Positions 9,676-24,005 of a stretch of 32,087 nt of DNA are shown here, one piece after another (within the stretch, counting starts at the first letter, position 1; the number at the start of each line of letters is the position of its first letter). Source of the DNA: a bacterium (GTDB lineage: Bacteria; B130-G9); assembly GCA_021160245.1 (NCBI GenBank), contig JAGHCW010000046.1:1-32087 (forward strand), given 5' to 3'. Both the position numbers and the translations under genes were made by a program. The notes beneath the pieces are model-generated. The model did no database searches and was not told the origin of the DNA. It saw only the letters and a list, made by a program, of their open reading frames with translations.

Positions 9676-9947
9676 TATAGATTCCTCATATTTCCGATTC
9701 ATATCATTTTGCGCCTCGACTATAACCGATCTGGATTAAAGGTGAACCTCGAAAAGATGAGGCAACGTATAGGGAAAATCAGCTAGTAACTCACCCCATG
9801 CAATGCTGTTTGCCAAAGTTCAACTCATCTCGCCTCTTCGAGAAGCAATTGCATAGGCGGGCTTTACTTCGCATATCTCGGATTATATTGTTATTCTGCT
9901 TGATTGATCGAACCTGAACTTTTTCTCATTTTTGAGGGATTAGCGCT
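9676..9947. other. Divergent intergenic region between GH57 gene and ATPase gene
   Basis: These 272 bases separate two divergent transcription units and must hold both promoters. I see an AT-rich stretch near 9881-9900 (TTATATTGTTATTCT) that could be a -10 region for the rightward ATPase gene, but no convincing -35. The ATPase SD GAGGGA lies just before its ATG. A short tract near 9856 (GGCGGGCTTTACTTC) resembles the REP-like units of 23169-23275. No gene or structured RNA is evident. Confidence 0.4.
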
Positions 9948-10631
9948 ATGTGTTCTCAGGCGTCCTCAACAGCACTTACTGGATTATCTGTTCGCGATTT
10001 CACGGCCTTCACAAAGCTCGATCTTGAGCTATCACCTGGCGTCAACGTGTTCATCGGCGCTAATGCAACCGGCAAAACACACATCCTAAAGTTGCTTTAC
10101 GCAGCCGCTGACGTAACACGCACACACGACCCCTATACTGATAAACTGGTTAGGGTTTTTCTCCCGTCTAGACGTCAGCTTGGTCGCCTTGTGCATCGTA
10201 AGCAAGGAAGGGGAAAGGCCACCATTGCGGTTGGCAGAAGCGGGCCGCAGTTAAAGGTGTCGTTCTCAACTCTGAAACGCTCCTTACCTGTTGTTTCAGG
10301 TGCGAAAGAGTGGGGTAACACGAAGATGGAATGTGTGTACATCCCTGTCAAGGAGATGCTCTCCAATTCGCCCGGTTTTCTCTCGCTGCATGAGTCGCAT
10401 TCCATACACTTCTCTGAAGTGTACCGGGACCTCATTCTTCGAGCCTCCTATCCTGCGTCCAGGGGCCCCATGGATACGAAACGCAAGGCTCTCCACAATA
10501 AGGAGACAGGAGACATTGAGGCCTGCGCAACGAATAGCTACCTTGAGATAGAGCCCAACGCAATCGGAGACGCCTTTATGGACCTCTACGACCGTGATGT
10601 TGAGAGGGCGCTCGGAGGAAGAAGAAAGTGA
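9948..10631 (+). CDS. AAA-type P-loop ATPase, N-terminal part only
   Basis: A 227-residue protein resembling the first half of AAA_15/AAA_21 (SMC/OLD-like) ATPases: strand LSVRDFTAF, then FIGANATGKTH with the Walker A motif at residues 37-44, and later VYIPVKEMLSNSPGF and HFSEVYRDLILRA, which recur in that family before the signature region. Complete members are about 370-400 residues and carry a Walker B (WDEPEANL-like) and a sensor His; none is present here or in any frame down to 11149. After residue about 185 the similarity stops and an unrelated tail follows, ending ERALGGRRK. SD GAGGGA precedes the ATG. The stop TGA overlaps the GTG of the next gene, so the two are coupled. It is either a decayed ATPase or a short variant that works with the downstream protein. 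Confidence 0.7.
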   Translation: MCSQASSTALTGLSVRDFTAFTKLDLELSPGVNVFIGANATGKTHILKLLYAAADVTRTHDPYTDKLVRVFLPSRRQLGRLVHRKQGRGKATIAVGRSGPQLKVSFSTLKRSLPVVSGAKEWGNTKMECVYIPVKEMLSNSPGFLSLHESHSIHFSEVYRDLILRASYPASRGPMDTKRKALHNKETGDIEACATNSYLEIEPNAIGDAFMDLYDRDVERALGGRRK

Positions 10632-11149
10632 CATTGCGGTTTCAGGAAGGGGAGCTGCATTTCGACTTCCACGGATGTGTCTCGGTCGAGAAGCTTGACA
10701 GGCAAGGCGTGTCAGCACCCCATGGGATGAAATTGGTTGATTTCCTGGTTGAGGAGACGAGGCGGACGCTATTGGTTGAGGTGAAGGACCCGTCGCAGAT
10801 TCCCGTACCCAAAAGCGAGAGGAGCAAGTTCGTTAAAAAGCTACAAGGCAAGGAACTAATCAATCACGAGCTCGTGCCCAAATACAGGGATAGTTATTGC
10901 TTTCTTCATTTGATGGAGCAAGACAGCAAGCCCTTCCTTCTCATCGTTGTTCTGGGAACAGATGCCCTTCCAACGGTGGGTCCAGTAGAGCTGCTTGAGT
11001 GCCGAAGGCGTCTGCTAGCCCGTCTTAGGAAGGAATGCGACCGCCCCTGGAAGTACCAATATGTAGCTGACTGTGTTGTGCTCACGGAGGCGACCTGGCC
11101 CCGGCATTTCCCATCGTATCCACTGCACCGCGGTGACTCCCCGCTCTGA
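10628..11149 (+). CDS. Hypothetical protein with possible PD-(D/E)XK nuclease core
   Basis: A 173-residue protein I do not recognise. Its middle part has the layout of a restriction-like nuclease: VDFLVEE (Asp 38), then a strand LLVEVKD with Glu 51 and Lys 53, giving D-x12-E-x-K; a helix rich in Lys and hydrophobic strands (CFLHLM, FLLIVVLG) follow. The start GTG overlaps the ATPase stop (GTGA), and GGAGGAAG lies 8 bases upstream inside the ATPase gene, so the start is well supported. Pairing of an AAA_15/21-type ATPase with a small nuclease-like protein recalls OLD, Gabija or retron-type defence modules, but no such family is recognised here. A DUF4276-type TOPRIM partner was considered; the E-x-K pattern fits PD-(D/E)XK better. 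Nuclease activity is a hypothesis. Confidence 0.6.
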   Translation: MTLRFQEGELHFDFHGCVSVEKLDRQGVSAPHGMKLVDFLVEETRRTLLVEVKDPSQIPVPKSERSKFVKKLQGKELINHELVPKYRDSYCFLHLMEQDSKPFLLIVVLGTDALPTVGPVELLECRRRLLARLRKECDRPWKYQYVADCVVLTEATWPRHFPSYPLHRGDSPL

Positions 11150-11234
11150 GCTCCCGCCCTGGACGGCCGTGCTCCCCAATTCAATCCTCATTCAACCCTT
11201 GGGCCAAAGTTCGCGCCCGGATAATTGCTGCATG

Positions 11235-11263
11235 TTGACTCCAAAAGAGTGGTTCGTTATCTT
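11235..11263 (+). promoter_or_regulatory. Sigma-70-like promoter for the cofactor operon
   Basis: TTGACT (11235-11240) and TATCTT (11258-11263) are separated by 17 bases, close to the housekeeping consensus. This lies between the nuclease-like gene and the flavodoxin gene, placing transcription start near 11270, about 55 bases upstream of the preferred TTG start at 11328. Identified by eye only. Confidence 0.45.
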
Positions 11264-11327
11264 GATGATCAGGATAGAAAGGGATTGAGTTGCTTGTATC
11301 ATGAAATCCCATAGGGAGGGCTTTCGT

Positions 11328-19236: not shown

Positions 19237-21636
19237 CTAACGCAGCCCCTTTCCCGGGGCCGGCCCGCTTGCAGCCCTCTTCTTCTTAGCACGCTCCAGG
19301 GCATCTAAGAATCTCCGGTCACGGCTGATCTCATAAAGCGCCTGATACTGCTCTGAGGCGCAGTCCCAATCGCCCTCGCTCTCGCACAAACTCGCCAGAT
19401 TTACCCGCGCCGAGATGTGCTCCGGGATTATCGAGATGGCCCTCTCAAAAAACTCCCTGGCCTTCGCCACATCATTGAGTGAGTAATAAACCGTGCCCAG
19501 ATTGTTCAGAACCTTGATATTGTCGTCCCGTATCTTCAAACAGCTCTCGTAAATATCTCTGGCCTTTGTAAGATATTCCCTCGCCTTAGCCTGATCTCCA
19601 CCTTCTTTGGTTATCTGCTCCCCAATATGCTGAAAGATGAGTCCTCTATTGAAGAGCGGCGTTGCGTTCTCAGGCTCAATCTTGTGCGCCTTCTGGTACT
19701 GGTTCATCGCCGCCTCGAAGTCGCCGAGCTCTCTGTAAGCGTTACCAAGCCTGATCATAGCGTCAACATAAAGCGGGTTGAGCTCAAGAGCGCGATTGAA
19801 CTGCAGAAGAGACTCTGAGAACTTGGCTTGGTTGTAAAGCACGGTGCCATAATGGTTCACGATATGATCAAAATATGGAGCGAGCTTGACCGCCATCTTG
19901 TCATCAACCTCGGCTATGCCGAAATTCTGCGCGATGTTCTCGACGATAGCAGAGAAATATCGCACCTCATAGGCTCGAGGCTGCGCCCAAACGGCCTTCC
20001 GCAGATGTTCCAGGGACTTGTCTATGTTGAACTTGTATTCCTCCGCCGTCTCAACCCCGTGAGCCATTGCCTCAAAGTATTGGCCCTTGCCGAAATGATA
20101 ATTGCCTAAAAGGCCTCGAATCGGGATCGTCAGACCCGCGAGCAGGATAACGACGAGCAGTATCCGCAAAAGCCCCATTCCGCTTGTGCTGCTTGATGAT
20201 TGCATCTTCTGGCCGTCTTGCGAACTGCGCTCTGTGACCTTGCCAAATACGTCAACTATCTTGGTCTGCAAACAAGGGCGGAAGCTGCCAGTTCTTATGC
20301 CATAGACTGCTGCAAAGAGACCGAGCGTAACCCAAAATGCGTGCGCCGAGCCCGGCATCTGCAAGTTTGAGGAGAAGAACGAATGGACGAATGTCGCCGA
20401 GATACCGCCCAGAAGTCCTAGCGAGGCGGCCCTCAAGAAGCCATCGTCTGAGAGCTTCATCGTCCTTATGGCCATCTTCAGGACAACAAGGATCAAAAAT
20501 ATCCACGCCGCGAAGCCTAAAACGCCCAGTTCAACGGCAGTCTGCACGTAGTCATTGTGAGCCTTGTGAATTACCTTGTCCCAGCCGGTGTTACGGCGCT
20601 CCTCAACTGTCCTGTATTTCGGATAGACTATCTGGAAATTGCCGATGCCAGCCCCCTGCGGCTCCTCCTTCGCAATCCTGAGAGAGCTCTTCCACACAAG
20701 AAACCTAAATTGCGTCGGCATGTCCTTCAGGTCGAATATGGTACCGAACTTGTGGGCAACACTCTTTCCCTCATCATCCTTGATGAATGGACTTGCCGCG
20801 GCAAAGACGACTACGGCGATGAGTCCCACAATCAGGAAGACCTTTCGATGAGGCGAGACGAGAAGCATAACGCCAATAGCTGCGGCAGTGCCCACCCAGG
20901 CGCCGCGGCAGAAGGTGATGCCGAGGAAGGCAATTGATACGACCGCACATAGAGCAAGGACTGCCGCCATGAGCCATGATTTGCGCCATCGGCCGATGCC
21001 CCATGCGGCCATGCTGAGAACCAAAGGCACTATAACCACAAGATACTGCCCGGCGAAGTTCGCATGGCCGAACGTCGAGCAGTAAGTCTCCCTATCGTAA
21101 GTATCAAGCCCGGGCTCAATCCGCTGCAATCCCAAGGCATGCAGAACGGAATTGAGCGAGGTCATGGGTTGGGACTTGTAAAAATACTGCATGATGCCGA
21201 TGACCGAGACGATAATGGCGACCGCGAGTATGACGGGTATCACTTTCTGAAGAGCGGCCTTTGTTCGGATCACGTTCGGGATAACAAGGAAGAATGCCGC
21301 TGTCGTCAGCAGAAAGAAGATACGATCGAAGCCCGCATAGGGATTTGCCGCAAAGAGGAGCGAGATAACGCCGCTGCCAACGTATGCGGCCACCGGAATG
21401 CCCAATGGTGTGATACAAATCCTCGCCGTCTCTTTCCCGGTCAACCCCAGCAGAAAGAACACAAAAAGAGCAAGCCCCAGCGCCTCAACGGCCACGTACT
21501 TAGTCGCCGTGTAGATGTCATAAGCCTGGAAATCGAAGTAAAGAGGAACCACCACAATGGACACAAGGAAAGTCAAGAAGGCCAGTCGTTGCGAATAGAC
21601 CAACCGGGGGATAGCGGAGAATATGCTTCTGGACAT
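19237..21636 (-). CDS. O-antigen ligase/polymerase-like membrane protein with TPR tail
   Basis: A 799-residue protein. Residues about 15-460 form some 11-12 transmembrane segments of the Wzy_C (WaaL/Wzy/PglL) type; signature segments are TFGHANFAGQYL, ITFCRGAWVG and the large periplasmic loop motif HKAHNDYVQTAVELG, where the His-x-x-Asn-Asp group is typical of O-antigen ligases. After another membrane segment (about 492-510) the C-terminal 260 residues are tetratricopeptide repeats, seen as LGNAYRELGDFEAAMNQYQKA and similar 34-residue units, likely periplasmic. Such proteins transfer or polymerise undecaprenyl-linked glycans; the acceptor is unknown. It lies 23 bases downstream of a paralogue on the same strand. 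Confidence 0.82.
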   Translation of the reverse strand: MSRSIFSAIPRLVYSQRLAFLTFLVSIVVVPLYFDFQAYDIYTATKYVAVEALGLALFVFFLLGLTGKETARICITPLGIPVAAYVGSGVISLLFAANPYAGFDRIFFLLTTAAFFLVIPNVIRTKAALQKVIPVILAVAIIVSVIGIMQYFYKSQPMTSLNSVLHALGLQRIEPGLDTYDRETYCSTFGHANFAGQYLVVIVPLVLSMAAWGIGRWRKSWLMAAVLALCAVVSIAFLGITFCRGAWVGTAAAIGVMLLVSPHRKVFLIVGLIAVVVFAAASPFIKDDEGKSVAHKFGTIFDLKDMPTQFRFLVWKSSLRIAKEEPQGAGIGNFQIVYPKYRTVEERRNTGWDKVIHKAHNDYVQTAVELGVLGFAAWIFLILVVLKMAIRTMKLSDDGFLRAASLGLLGGISATFVHSFFSSNLQMPGSAHAFWVTLGLFAAVYGIRTGSFRPCLQTKIVDVFGKVTERSSQDGQKMQSSSSTSGMGLLRILLVVILLAGLTIPIRGLLGNYHFGKGQYFEAMAHGVETAEEYKFNIDKSLEHLRKAVWAQPRAYEVRYFSAIVENIAQNFGIAEVDDKMAVKLAPYFDHIVNHYGTVLYNQAKFSESLLQFNRALELNPLYVDAMIRLGNAYRELGDFEAAMNQYQKAHKIEPENATPLFNRGLIFQHIGEQITKEGGDQAKAREYLTKARDIYESCLKIRDDNIKVLNNLGTVYYSLNDVAKAREFFERAISIIPEHISARVNLASLCESEGDWDCASEQYQALYEISRDRRFLDALERAKKKRAASGPAPGKGLR

Positions 21637-21659
21637 CTGACCGCCTAAGCTCTGGTTTA

Positions 21660-24005
21660 TTATCTAGATTTCAATATCCGATCAAGGGTCGCTTTTACCG
21701 TTCTAAGGTCTGGCTTTATCTTAAGGGCGATCTTATAGTGCCTTATCGCCTTGTCAATCTCTCCTCGCCTCTCGAACAGGCGCGCGAGGTTCAGGTGCGG
21801 TTCAAAAAGCCCAGGATCAAGCTCCGTTGCCTTCTCGAGCTGCGTAATTGCCTCGTCTTCCCTCCCCATCAAAAGGAGCGCTGTCCCGAGATTGCTGAAG
21901 AGATTCGCGTCATCAGGATTCATCTCAATCGCAACTCGCAGAAGCTCCACCGCCTCGCCAAACTCCCCACGAGCGGCAAGTGTTTCGGCCAGTTTCGACG
22001 TCGCCACGGGATGCCCGGGCGAGAGCGCTAGGGCCTTTCGGAAGGCGGCTTCACCCTCCTCGAACCTTCGGAGCGAGAGCAGCGTCGCGCCGAGGTTAAG
22101 CCAGGCTTCCTTGAACGTGGCATCGATGGCAACAGCTCGCTCGAAAGCCGCAAGAGCCTCGATAAGCGAGCCCGGATCTCTCCTCTTCCCCGCCCTTTGG
22201 GAGTAGGCGACTCCAATGTTGTTCTGAACCTGAGGCCAAAATGGAGCGAGCGACTTGCCCGGCTCCAGAACGTCGATTGCCTGCTGATATTCCTCGTCTG
22301 CCAGATGGAGGTTACCAAGGAGTATCCTCGGTTCTACGTAGTAGTTCGCACGCTCAATTGATGCTCTCAATGCCACTTTGGCATCCGCTGTCCTGTCCTG
22401 ACGAGACAGCCGACGCCCCTTATTAAACTCATAATCCGAGACTAAAAAACTGATAGGGCGAACTAAGAGCAGAATACCCAGCACGGCAAGCCCAAATATG
22501 ATGACCGGCTTGGCAACGGGGCTTATCCGAATGGATGGACGGGCTGGAAAGCCCGTCCTACCCATTGGGGAGTCCGACGATGGAGAGCCCGTCCTGCACG
22601 GTGCGGCCGTTGTAGCCCAGAGAACTACCATGTTCAGGACGATTACAGTTGATGAGGCGGGCGCGGTAAAATTGCCGCTGAAGAATGCGTGGACGAGCGA
22701 GGCGAAGATGCCGCTTGCAGCGCCGATTGCGAGTGGGGGAATCCCGCCCACCGAGCCCCGTTTGAGAATTATTTTGAAGAGAGGCCGGAATACCGCTATG
22801 CCCAGGATGAGCGAGGCGATAATCCCCACAATGCCCGTCTCGCAGGCGATCTTAATGTAGTCGTTATGAGGCGATCTGACGCTCACTTTCTCGCCCGCGA
22901 TCTTGTGCTCGTCCGGCAGGCGAACGGCGGGGTAGTAAAGAGAAAATGCGCCACAACCGACGCCAAATAGAGGGTGCTGCTTGATCATCTCAATCGCCCC
23001 CTGCCAAAGCTTTAGCCTGAACGCAATCGGCGCATCTGAGAGATTGAGTGATTCCCCGGCCTTTTCGATGGCTGTTGTGCCTCGTTCACGTTGCAGCAGC
23101 GAGAACGAGAGTGCTCCGGTGGCGATAACAATCAGAGCGAAGAGGACGCCAGCCGCCTTTGGATAAAAGACGGGCTTTACTGCCTGTCCGGTGTCCGACG
23201 GGCTTTCCAGCCTGTCGGTGTGGGATGGGCTTTCCGGCCTGTCGGGTGTAGGGCGGGCTTTGCTGCCAGTCCTTCTAATGTGCAACGCAAATAAAATCGC
23301 GAAAACAAACACAGAGACCAGCATCCCAAGCCACGCGCCTCGGCTAAATGTAATGCAAAGAAAGGCGAGTATAGCGCAGCTGGCGGCAAGCGGAGCTATC
23401 GCTCTGGCAATTGCCCCCCTAAGAAGCAGCTGTGCGACCAGAGCAAGGCCCAATGGGAACACACCAATCAGATACTGCCCGGCGAAATTATCATGCCCAA
23501 GCGTCGCCCCGAACATCTCGAAACCATAGCTGTCGTGGATTGGAGGAAATATCGAGCCAGTGAGAAAGTGGAGAATCCCAAGAGCAGATATGATCGCGGC
23601 GGCCCAGAGCGAGAAGCTAGCAAGAAACTCAACTTTCGCGCCTCGCACTGCGCCGGCGCCCGCGAGAAGCAGCATGGCCAGGGCTGAGATTCGCAAGAAC
23701 TCGTTTAAGGACACACCCGGATTGACCGTGCCCGGAATGGATAGTAGCTGCGCGACAAGGACAAGGGTGACCGGGACAATAAGTTGTCGCGGAAGCCAGC
23801 TGTATTGCTCTCGAAAAGACAGGATGATGGCCAGAATTGCGACAGCGCCGAATATGGCGAGCGAGGTATTTTTGATCGTGATATAACCGTCCGACGTGAG
23901 CGTGTTGGTGAATATCAAGGGTATCACGACCGAGGCGCTCAGCAGAACGACAACGGCTAGCTTGGTGTCCAATCGGCCCTTGATTGCCAGCGGATTACTA
24001 TCCAT
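21660..24005 (-). CDS. O-antigen ligase/polymerase-like membrane protein with TPR tail and REP-like insertions
   Basis: A 781-residue paralogue of the downstream gene. Shared marks are ATLGHDNFAGQYL, ITFSRGAWLGML and SPHNDYIKIACETG in the Wzy_C domain, then a C-terminal TPR domain (for example AWLNLGATLLSLRRFEEGEA). Two segments absent from the paralogue stand out: residues about 244-279 (Pro/Ser/Asp-rich, RPESPSHTDRLESPSDTG) and about 468-490 (RTGSPSSDSP, RTGFPARPS). Both are encoded by short DNA repeats with GACGGGCTTT-type cores and lie in loops between membrane segments, so the frame survives. Tandem arrangement suggests duplication, with possible division between ligase and polymerase roles. 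The ATG at 24005 has GAGGGG about 12 bases upstream, a weak SD. Confidence 0.82.
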   Translation of the reverse strand: MDSNPLAIKGRLDTKLAVVVLLSASVVIPLIFTNTLTSDGYITIKNTSLAIFGAVAILAIILSFREQYSWLPRQLIVPVTLVLVAQLLSIPGTVNPGVSLNEFLRISALAMLLLAGAGAVRGAKVEFLASFSLWAAAIISALGILHFLTGSIFPPIHDSYGFEMFGATLGHDNFAGQYLIGVFPLGLALVAQLLLRGAIARAIAPLAASCAILAFLCITFSRGAWLGMLVSVFVFAILFALHIRRTGSKARPTPDRPESPSHTDRLESPSDTGQAVKPVFYPKAAGVLFALIVIATGALSFSLLQRERGTTAIEKAGESLNLSDAPIAFRLKLWQGAIEMIKQHPLFGVGCGAFSLYYPAVRLPDEHKIAGEKVSVRSPHNDYIKIACETGIVGIIASLILGIAVFRPLFKIILKRGSVGGIPPLAIGAASGIFASLVHAFFSGNFTAPASSTVIVLNMVVLWATTAAPCRTGSPSSDSPMGRTGFPARPSIRISPVAKPVIIFGLAVLGILLLVRPISFLVSDYEFNKGRRLSRQDRTADAKVALRASIERANYYVEPRILLGNLHLADEEYQQAIDVLEPGKSLAPFWPQVQNNIGVAYSQRAGKRRDPGSLIEALAAFERAVAIDATFKEAWLNLGATLLSLRRFEEGEAAFRKALALSPGHPVATSKLAETLAARGEFGEAVELLRVAIEMNPDDANLFSNLGTALLLMGREDEAITQLEKATELDPGLFEPHLNLARLFERRGEIDKAIRHYKIALKIKPDLRTVKATLDRILKSR
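22537..22600. repeat. REP-like palindromic repeat inside coding sequence (site 1)
   Basis: GGACGGGCT and AGCCCGTCC (22537-22558) form a perfect 9-base inverted repeat around GGAA, followed by TACCCA; a second partial copy (GGAGAGCCCGTCC) lies just downstream. It sits inside the second Wzy_C/TPR gene, between transmembrane regions, and is translated in frame. The core is the same as in the four-unit cluster at 23169-23275. Confidence 0.75.
23169..23275. repeat. Four tandem REP-like units inside coding sequence (site 2)
   Basis: Four units with core (C/T)GGGCTTT begin at 23171, 23199, 23226 and 23254, spaced 28, 27 and 28 bases, each followed by a (C/G)CCTGTC-like half that completes a small palindrome. 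Because of the 28-base steps successive units are read in different frames, so the repetition exists at DNA level, not protein level. There are no unique spacers, so it is not a CRISPR. Confidence 0.75.

What the first reader, a model, noticed from the sequence alone, without database searches (positions are those of the whole stretch)
9948..11149. Coupled P-loop ATPase fragment and PD-(D/E)XK-like protein: possible small two-gene system or decayed defence module
The first protein has an AAA_15/21-type Walker A (residues 37-44) and family-like segments up to about residue 185, then an unrelated tail; no Walker B is present in any frame. The second has D38-x12-E51-x-K53, a restriction-like nuclease layout. 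They share a GTGA overlap with a strong SD inside the ATPase, and stand alone between divergent and unrelated operons. An ATPase plus a nuclease in one transcript is the usual form of OLD/Gabija-like immunity, but the ATPase half without Walker B is odd: either a new minimal system or a deletion that fused the ATPase to the start of another gene.
Basis: partly seen in the sequence, partly recalled or inferred. Interest (0 to 1): 0.62.

Follow-up and report, generated by a model that had tools for sequence, protein, structure and literature searches.

The report
Internally deleted HEC-02 defence gene pair
This is a known type of two-gene anti-phage candidate (an OLD-type ATPase plus a restriction-like nuclease) in which the middle third of the ATPase has been cleanly deleted, so it is most likely a recently broken copy and not a new minimal system.

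Summary
The two genes are real, translationally coupled, and correctly located. The pair belongs to a known PADLOC candidate defence system, HEC-02: ATPase A matches HEC-02A (E 3.5e-55) and protein B matches HEC-02B (E 3.1e-56). The ATPase's odd tail is not unrelated. It is the family's own C-terminus, and the ATPase has an in-frame internal deletion of about 116-118 residues at residues ~181-185. The lost piece carries the signature (AEGxRK), Walker B (LFWDEPE), D-loop (NLNP) and H-switch (ATH). The same genome holds an intact 340-aa paralogue on another contig that shows what is missing. The 55 other genomic copies I tallied keep the core; none has the same deletion, and a few are broken in other ways. 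B keeps D38, E51 and K53, conserved across the family. Its AlphaFold model (pLDDT 83) resembles PD-(D/E)XK enzymes only weakly. Several relatives sit inside BREX operons, whereas the window copy stands among housekeeping genes. The rest of the ATPase shows no faster evolution, so the deletion is recent, an assembly error, or, least likely, functional. PADLOC already lists the pair as HEC-02, and published BREX work describes OLD-ABC plus PD-(D/E)XK pairing as a class. Interest is low.

The parts
9948..10631 (+). HEC-02A-type OLD-ABC ATPase with internal in-frame deletion, 227 aa
   Evidence: PADLOC PDLC04213 E 3.5e-55 over profile 3-176 of 337; own-genome full-length paralogue G000:C154 matches query 9-182 and 182-223 in two blocks; alignment of 16 members
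10056..10079 (+). Walker A motif GANATGKT, residues 37-44
   Evidence: alignment columns conserved in the family
10488..10502 (+). Deletion junction (residues ~181-185, ALHNK): about 116-118 residues present in full-length relatives are absent (signature, Walker B, D-loop, H-switch)
   Evidence: missing segment not found elsewhere in the genome except in the C154 paralogue
10503..10628 (+). Retained family C-terminus (ETGDIEACATNSYLEIEPNAIGDAFMDLYDRDVERALGG...)
10615..10620 (+). Shine-Dalgarno-like GGAGGA for the second gene, inside the ATPase gene
   Evidence: read from sequence
10628..11149 (+). HEC-02B, PD-(D/E)XK-like partner protein, 173 aa; D38, E51, K53, E7 and K85 conserved
   Evidence: PADLOC PDLC04220 E 3.1e-56 over 4-166 of 172; alignments; model pLDDT 82.6; weak fold matches rich in PD-(D/E)XK enzymes

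Best explanation
The locus is a HEC-02 candidate anti-phage pair whose ATPase gene lost about 350 bp in one in-frame deletion. In the intact family (inferred mechanism, by analogy with OLD/PARIS-type systems) the OLD-ABC ATPase would dimerise, bind ATP between the Walker A of one subunit and the signature of the other, sense infection or an anti-restriction protein, and thereby restrain or release the small PD-(D/E)XK nuclease encoded next to it. In the window copy the ATPase keeps Walker A, the segment between Walker A and the junction, and the C-terminal tail. It lacks the signature, Walker B, D-loop and H-switch, so it should neither fold as an ABC domain nor hydrolyse ATP. The system is therefore most likely inactive, and recently so: the rest of the gene, the ribosome-binding site and the coupled nuclease gene have not yet decayed. 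Shown: family membership, extent of deletion, intact B, no faster substitution rate. Inferred: loss of function, recency, and the ancestral mechanism.
For: A is HEC-02A and B is HEC-02B. The own-genome paralogue (340 aa) aligns in two blocks that abut at window residue 182. Fifteen other members all carry the (A/S)EG signature, the DEPE Walker B, the D-loop and the H-switch histidine. By my tally 55 copies in the surveyed genomes match the profile over at least 290 of 337 positions. The missing segment exists nowhere else in the genome but in the C154 paralogue. Of the 31 columns conserved in the others, 30 are intact in the retained part of A. Tajima relative-rate comparisons show no acceleration (largest chi-square 2.63, and there the excess changes are in the relative, not the window). 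Other copies in the survey are visibly broken: a frameshift in G724, remnants in G542 and G430, a stop in G533. The truncated A gave only a poor model (pLDDT 51.9, pTM 0.46, P-loop region about 43), though no full-length control was folded.
Against: The deletion is in frame and leaves start, stop, overlap and ribosome-binding site intact; chance gives an in-frame deletion one time in three. No closely related strain is available to show the intact state or date the event. The low-confidence AlphaFold model may reflect a shallow alignment of 8 rows and not true misfolding.
Confidence: 0.78

Rival explanations
1. Assembly or strain-mixture artefact: the real chromosome (or part of the population) has a full-length HEC-02A here and the contig lost about 350 bp.
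For: The genome is a draft of 244 contigs, 94.8% complete, so collapsed or chimeric joins are possible. The retained parts of A show no decay at all, as expected if the gene is intact in nature.
Against: A clean in-frame join without a long direct repeat at the junction is not the usual form of an assembly error. The missing piece was not left on any other contig of this genome.
Confidence: 0.12
2. A functional minimal variant: the 227-aa protein keeps a job (for example ATP binding, sensing or holding B in check) without hydrolysis.
For: Frame, start, coupling and conserved residues are kept, and B is intact. No relative-rate increase.
Against: None of the 55 other tallied genomic copies has this form. 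The lost part includes the Walker B strand and the signature needed for any ABC dimer. The model is poor.
Confidence: 0.05
3. The nuclease B still works, with ATPase function supplied in trans by the intact HEC-02A paralogue on contig C154.
For: The paralogue is full length, and its ATPase is 50% identical to the window ATPase over shared columns.
Against: The paralogue has its own, very different partner (18.7% identical to window B; it matches another HEC-02B profile, PDLC04224), so cognate pairing with window B is doubtful.
Confidence: 0.04
4. One reading: a deletion fused the ATPase N-terminus to the start of another gene.
For: There is a deletion.
Against: The tail aligns with the C-terminus of HEC-02A itself (52% identity to the paralogue over 182-223; alignment).
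Confidence: 0.01

Closest known systems
HEC-02 (PADLOC-DB candidate pair HEC-02A + HEC-02B, Hma-embedded candidate)
   Same: Both genes hit its profiles with E below 1e-54; same gene order and overlap.
   Different: The window ATPase lacks about 116-118 residues (catalytic core), and the pair is not embedded in a larger defence operon.
OLD-ABC ATPase + PD-(D/E)XK REase dyads recruited by BREX (described in PMC12839542 as backup effectors)
   Same: Pair type and family; relatives L001, L037, L039, L041 and L042 lie inside BREX operons.
   Different: The window copy stands alone, and the genome has no PglZ match.
PARIS (AriA OLD-ABC + AriB TOPRIM)
   Same: OLD-type ATPase followed by a small nuclease; full-length HEC-02A matches AriA profiles at 1e-24 to 5e-26.
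   Different: B is PD-(D/E)XK-like and matches HEC-02B, not AriB.
Gabija (GajA/GajB)
   Same: OLD-type ATPase N-terminus (weak match 8.7e-7).
   Different: GajA carries TOPRIM in the same chain and its partner is a helicase (PMC12839542); neither is found here.

Membership tests
HEC-02 | ATPase matches a HEC-02A profile | tested here: met
   PDLC04213 E 3.5e-55, but only profile positions 3-176 in the best stretch
HEC-02 | Adjacent partner matches a HEC-02B profile | tested here: met
   PDLC04220 E 3.1e-56 over nearly the whole profile
HEC-02 | Full-length ATPase of about 340 aa with catalytic core | tested here: not met
   about 116-118 residues missing; hence filed as a deleted, probably inactive copy
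OLD-family ABC ATPase | Walker A | tested here: met
   GANATGKT at 37-44
OLD-family ABC ATPase | Walker B, signature, D-loop, H-switch | tested here: not met
   DEP and AEG/SGG patterns absent in all six frames; present in all 15 aligned relatives
PD-(D/E)XK nuclease (protein B) | D...(D/E)xK catalytic residues conserved | tested here: met
   E51 and K53 in all 16 aligned members, D38 in 15 with E in one; D38, E51 and K53 invariant
PD-(D/E)XK nuclease (protein B) | PD-(D/E)XK fold | tested here: inconclusive
   Model pLDDT 82.6. No Foldseek match at E 0.001 or better; top rows are Hjc, PspGI and BspD6I nucleases. VIA-align Z 5-8 with Upx, Nt.BspD6I, BstEII, XisH, Can2 and FokI, mixed with unrelated GTPases
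PD-(D/E)XK nuclease (protein B) | Nuclease activity | not testable with these tools
   needs a biochemical assay
PARIS | Partner matches AriB (TOPRIM) | tested here: not met
   no AriB profile at E up to 1 for protein B
Gabija | TOPRIM domain in the ATPase chain and a helicase partner | tested here: not met
   A is 227 aa with no TOPRIM match and B is 173 aa with no GajB or helicase match

The most novel reading that the evidence does not exclude
The 227-aa ATPase remnant is a selected, hydrolysis-free form that still controls the PD-(D/E)XK partner, i.e. a minimal HEC-02 with only Walker A.
Probability: 0.05. Interest if true: 0.5.

Novelty: new member of a known kind. Interest (0 to 1): 0.13.

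Why it matters
As a broken copy it matters little: it illustrates that accessory defence pairs are gained and lost. The useful by-product is comparative. HEC-02 pairs occur both inside BREX operons (between brxC and pglX, or next to pglX and a BrxH helicase) and alone, and A and B appear to have changed partners. If the short ATPase were functional, it would show that OLD-type control of a nuclease does not need ATP hydrolysis.

Tried and rejected
Frameshift or hidden Walker B in another frame: rejected. Missing segment elsewhere in the genome: only the C154 paralogue. Long direct repeats at the junction: none found in 9700-11300. The same junction in viral contigs: none. Same-length homologues in viral contigs: the direct search with window A found none, and the full-length profile search fetched nine relatives with about 295 residues or more matched. 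Relaxed selection in the retained parts: not seen. BREX core in the same genome (PglZ): none. Sequence search of B against solved structures gave nothing credible (one ferritin hit at E 0.015). Literature: no open-access paper found in the library treats HEC-02 experimentally. HECs in general and the source preprint (doi 10.1101/2024.01.29.577857) are cited by PMC12988326.

Full report
What is there. The two ORFs are at the stated coordinates: A 9948-10631 (227 aa) and B 10628-11149 (173 aa), overlapping by GTGA, with GGAGGA 7 nt before the GTG of B. Upstream lies a divergent GH57 branching enzyme with glycosyltransferases behind it. Downstream come flavodoxin, folK and a deoxynucleoside kinase, then further ordinary genes. 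No tRNA is in the window and composition does not stand out.

Identity. Pfam sees only the P-loop of A (AAA_15, below its cut-off) and nothing in B. PADLOC-DB identifies both: A as HEC-02A (PDLC04213, E 3.5e-55) and B as HEC-02B (PDLC04220, E 3.1e-56). HEC is the Hma-embedded candidate series; PMC12988326 cites the source preprint (doi 10.1101/2024.01.29.577857) and says several HECs, including HEC-06, showed antiviral activity. I found no experimental paper on HEC-02 itself in the library.

The deletion. The own genome carries an intact paralogue on contig C154. It matches window A in two blocks, query 9-182 and 182-223, which lie about 350 bp apart in the paralogue. Alignment of 16 members shows one large gap in window A of about 116-118 residues relative to its nearest relatives, with the parts before and after aligned. 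The missing part holds the ABC signature equivalent (AEGxRK in the near relatives), Walker B (LFWDEPE), D-loop (NLNP) and H-switch (ATH). No frame of the region contains these. Nowhere else in the genome is the segment found except in the paralogue. The supposed unrelated tail, ETGDIEACATNSYLEIEPNAIGDAFMDLYDRDVERALGG, is the family C-terminus.

How unusual. In genome surveys with the HEC-02A profile (386 genomes domain-wide, then 40, 64, 5 and 291 genomes of four other phyla) I tallied 55 copies that match over at least 290 of 337 positions. Other incomplete copies proved to be a contig end (G503), a frameshifted gene with B still present (G724), and N-terminal remnants (G542, G430), plus one with an internal stop (G533). 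None has the same internal deletion. Broken HEC-02A genes are therefore not rare, and the window copy is one more.

Age and selection. On shared columns window A is as conserved as intact relatives (30 of 31 conserved positions) and does not evolve faster in Tajima comparisons with six relatives and three outgroups. That means the deletion is recent, is an assembly error, or left a function behind. The data do not separate these. My ranking rests on prior plausibility: the lost segment contains what an ABC-type dimer needs to work.

Protein B. D38, E51, K53, E7 and K85 are invariant in nine members. AlphaFold2 gives a confident model (pLDDT 82.6, pTM 0.82) with D38 just before strand 39-42 and E51/K53 at the end of strand 47-53, the layout expected of PD-(D/E)XK enzymes. 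Fold matches are weak (no Foldseek E at or below 0.001) but the best-ranked rows are rich in PD-(D/E)XK enzymes: archaeal Hjc, PspGI, BspD6I, and by VIA-align Upx, Nt.BspD6I, BstEII, XisH, Can2 and FokI at Z 5-8, mixed with GTPases and acetyl-CoA carboxylase fragments. I call the fold likely, not proven. The short A gave a poor model (pLDDT 51.9) without a full-length control, so this is weak evidence.

Context in relatives. The pair lies between brxC and pglX in a Methylomonas plasmid. It has the same layout in the cyanobacterial locus L001 and in viral-collection contigs L041 and L042; in L039 it lies between pglXI and a BrxHI helicase followed by pglZ. A Sphingobium plasmid shows the same gene order with mostly unnamed products. 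PMC12839542 reports OLD-ABC ATPases paired with non-TOPRIM nucleases, PD-(D/E)XK included, in 594 taxa carrying BREX or related systems, and proposes they are backup effectors. So the pair type is published. The window's own genome has no PglZ match and the pair there stands alone.

Mechanism. Intact: the ATPase dimer senses infection and gates the nuclease (inference from PARIS-type systems as described in PMC12839542). Here: the ATPase cannot form a composite ATP site, so gating should be lost and the nuclease be silent, harmless at its level of expression, or on its way to decay (inference).

Verdict. A known kind of system with a damaged ATPase; low interest.

Noticed in passing
L025:1501-3061 (own genome, contig C154): Intact second HEC-02 pair: A is close to the window's (50%) but its B is very divergent (18.7% to window B, longest branch in the B tree, profile PDLC04224). 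Window B itself groups with BREX-embedded L001/L042 although window A lies nearest G284 and C154, so A and B seem to have swapped partners.
   Followed up: partly
L052 (G405:C130:6607-7644): HEC-02A-like match lies inside an open frame of 1026 aa (829 aa from the first start seen), suggesting the ATPase is fused to another large domain, followed by a B-like gene.
   Followed up: no
L024 and L034 (G302:C11): Two full-length HEC-02 pairs within about 19 kb on one contig, on opposite strands.
   Followed up: no
L099 (G724:C60): HEC-02A broken by a frameshift while its B partner remains.
   Followed up: partly
L039-L047: HEC-02 pairs occur in contigs of the viral collection, several of them inside BREX operons, so these contigs may be host islands or mobile elements and not phages.
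   Followed up: partly
window 19237-24005 (-): Two adjacent proteins of the same architecture, O-antigen ligase (Wzy_C) domain plus C-terminal TPR repeats, in tandem.
   Followed up: no
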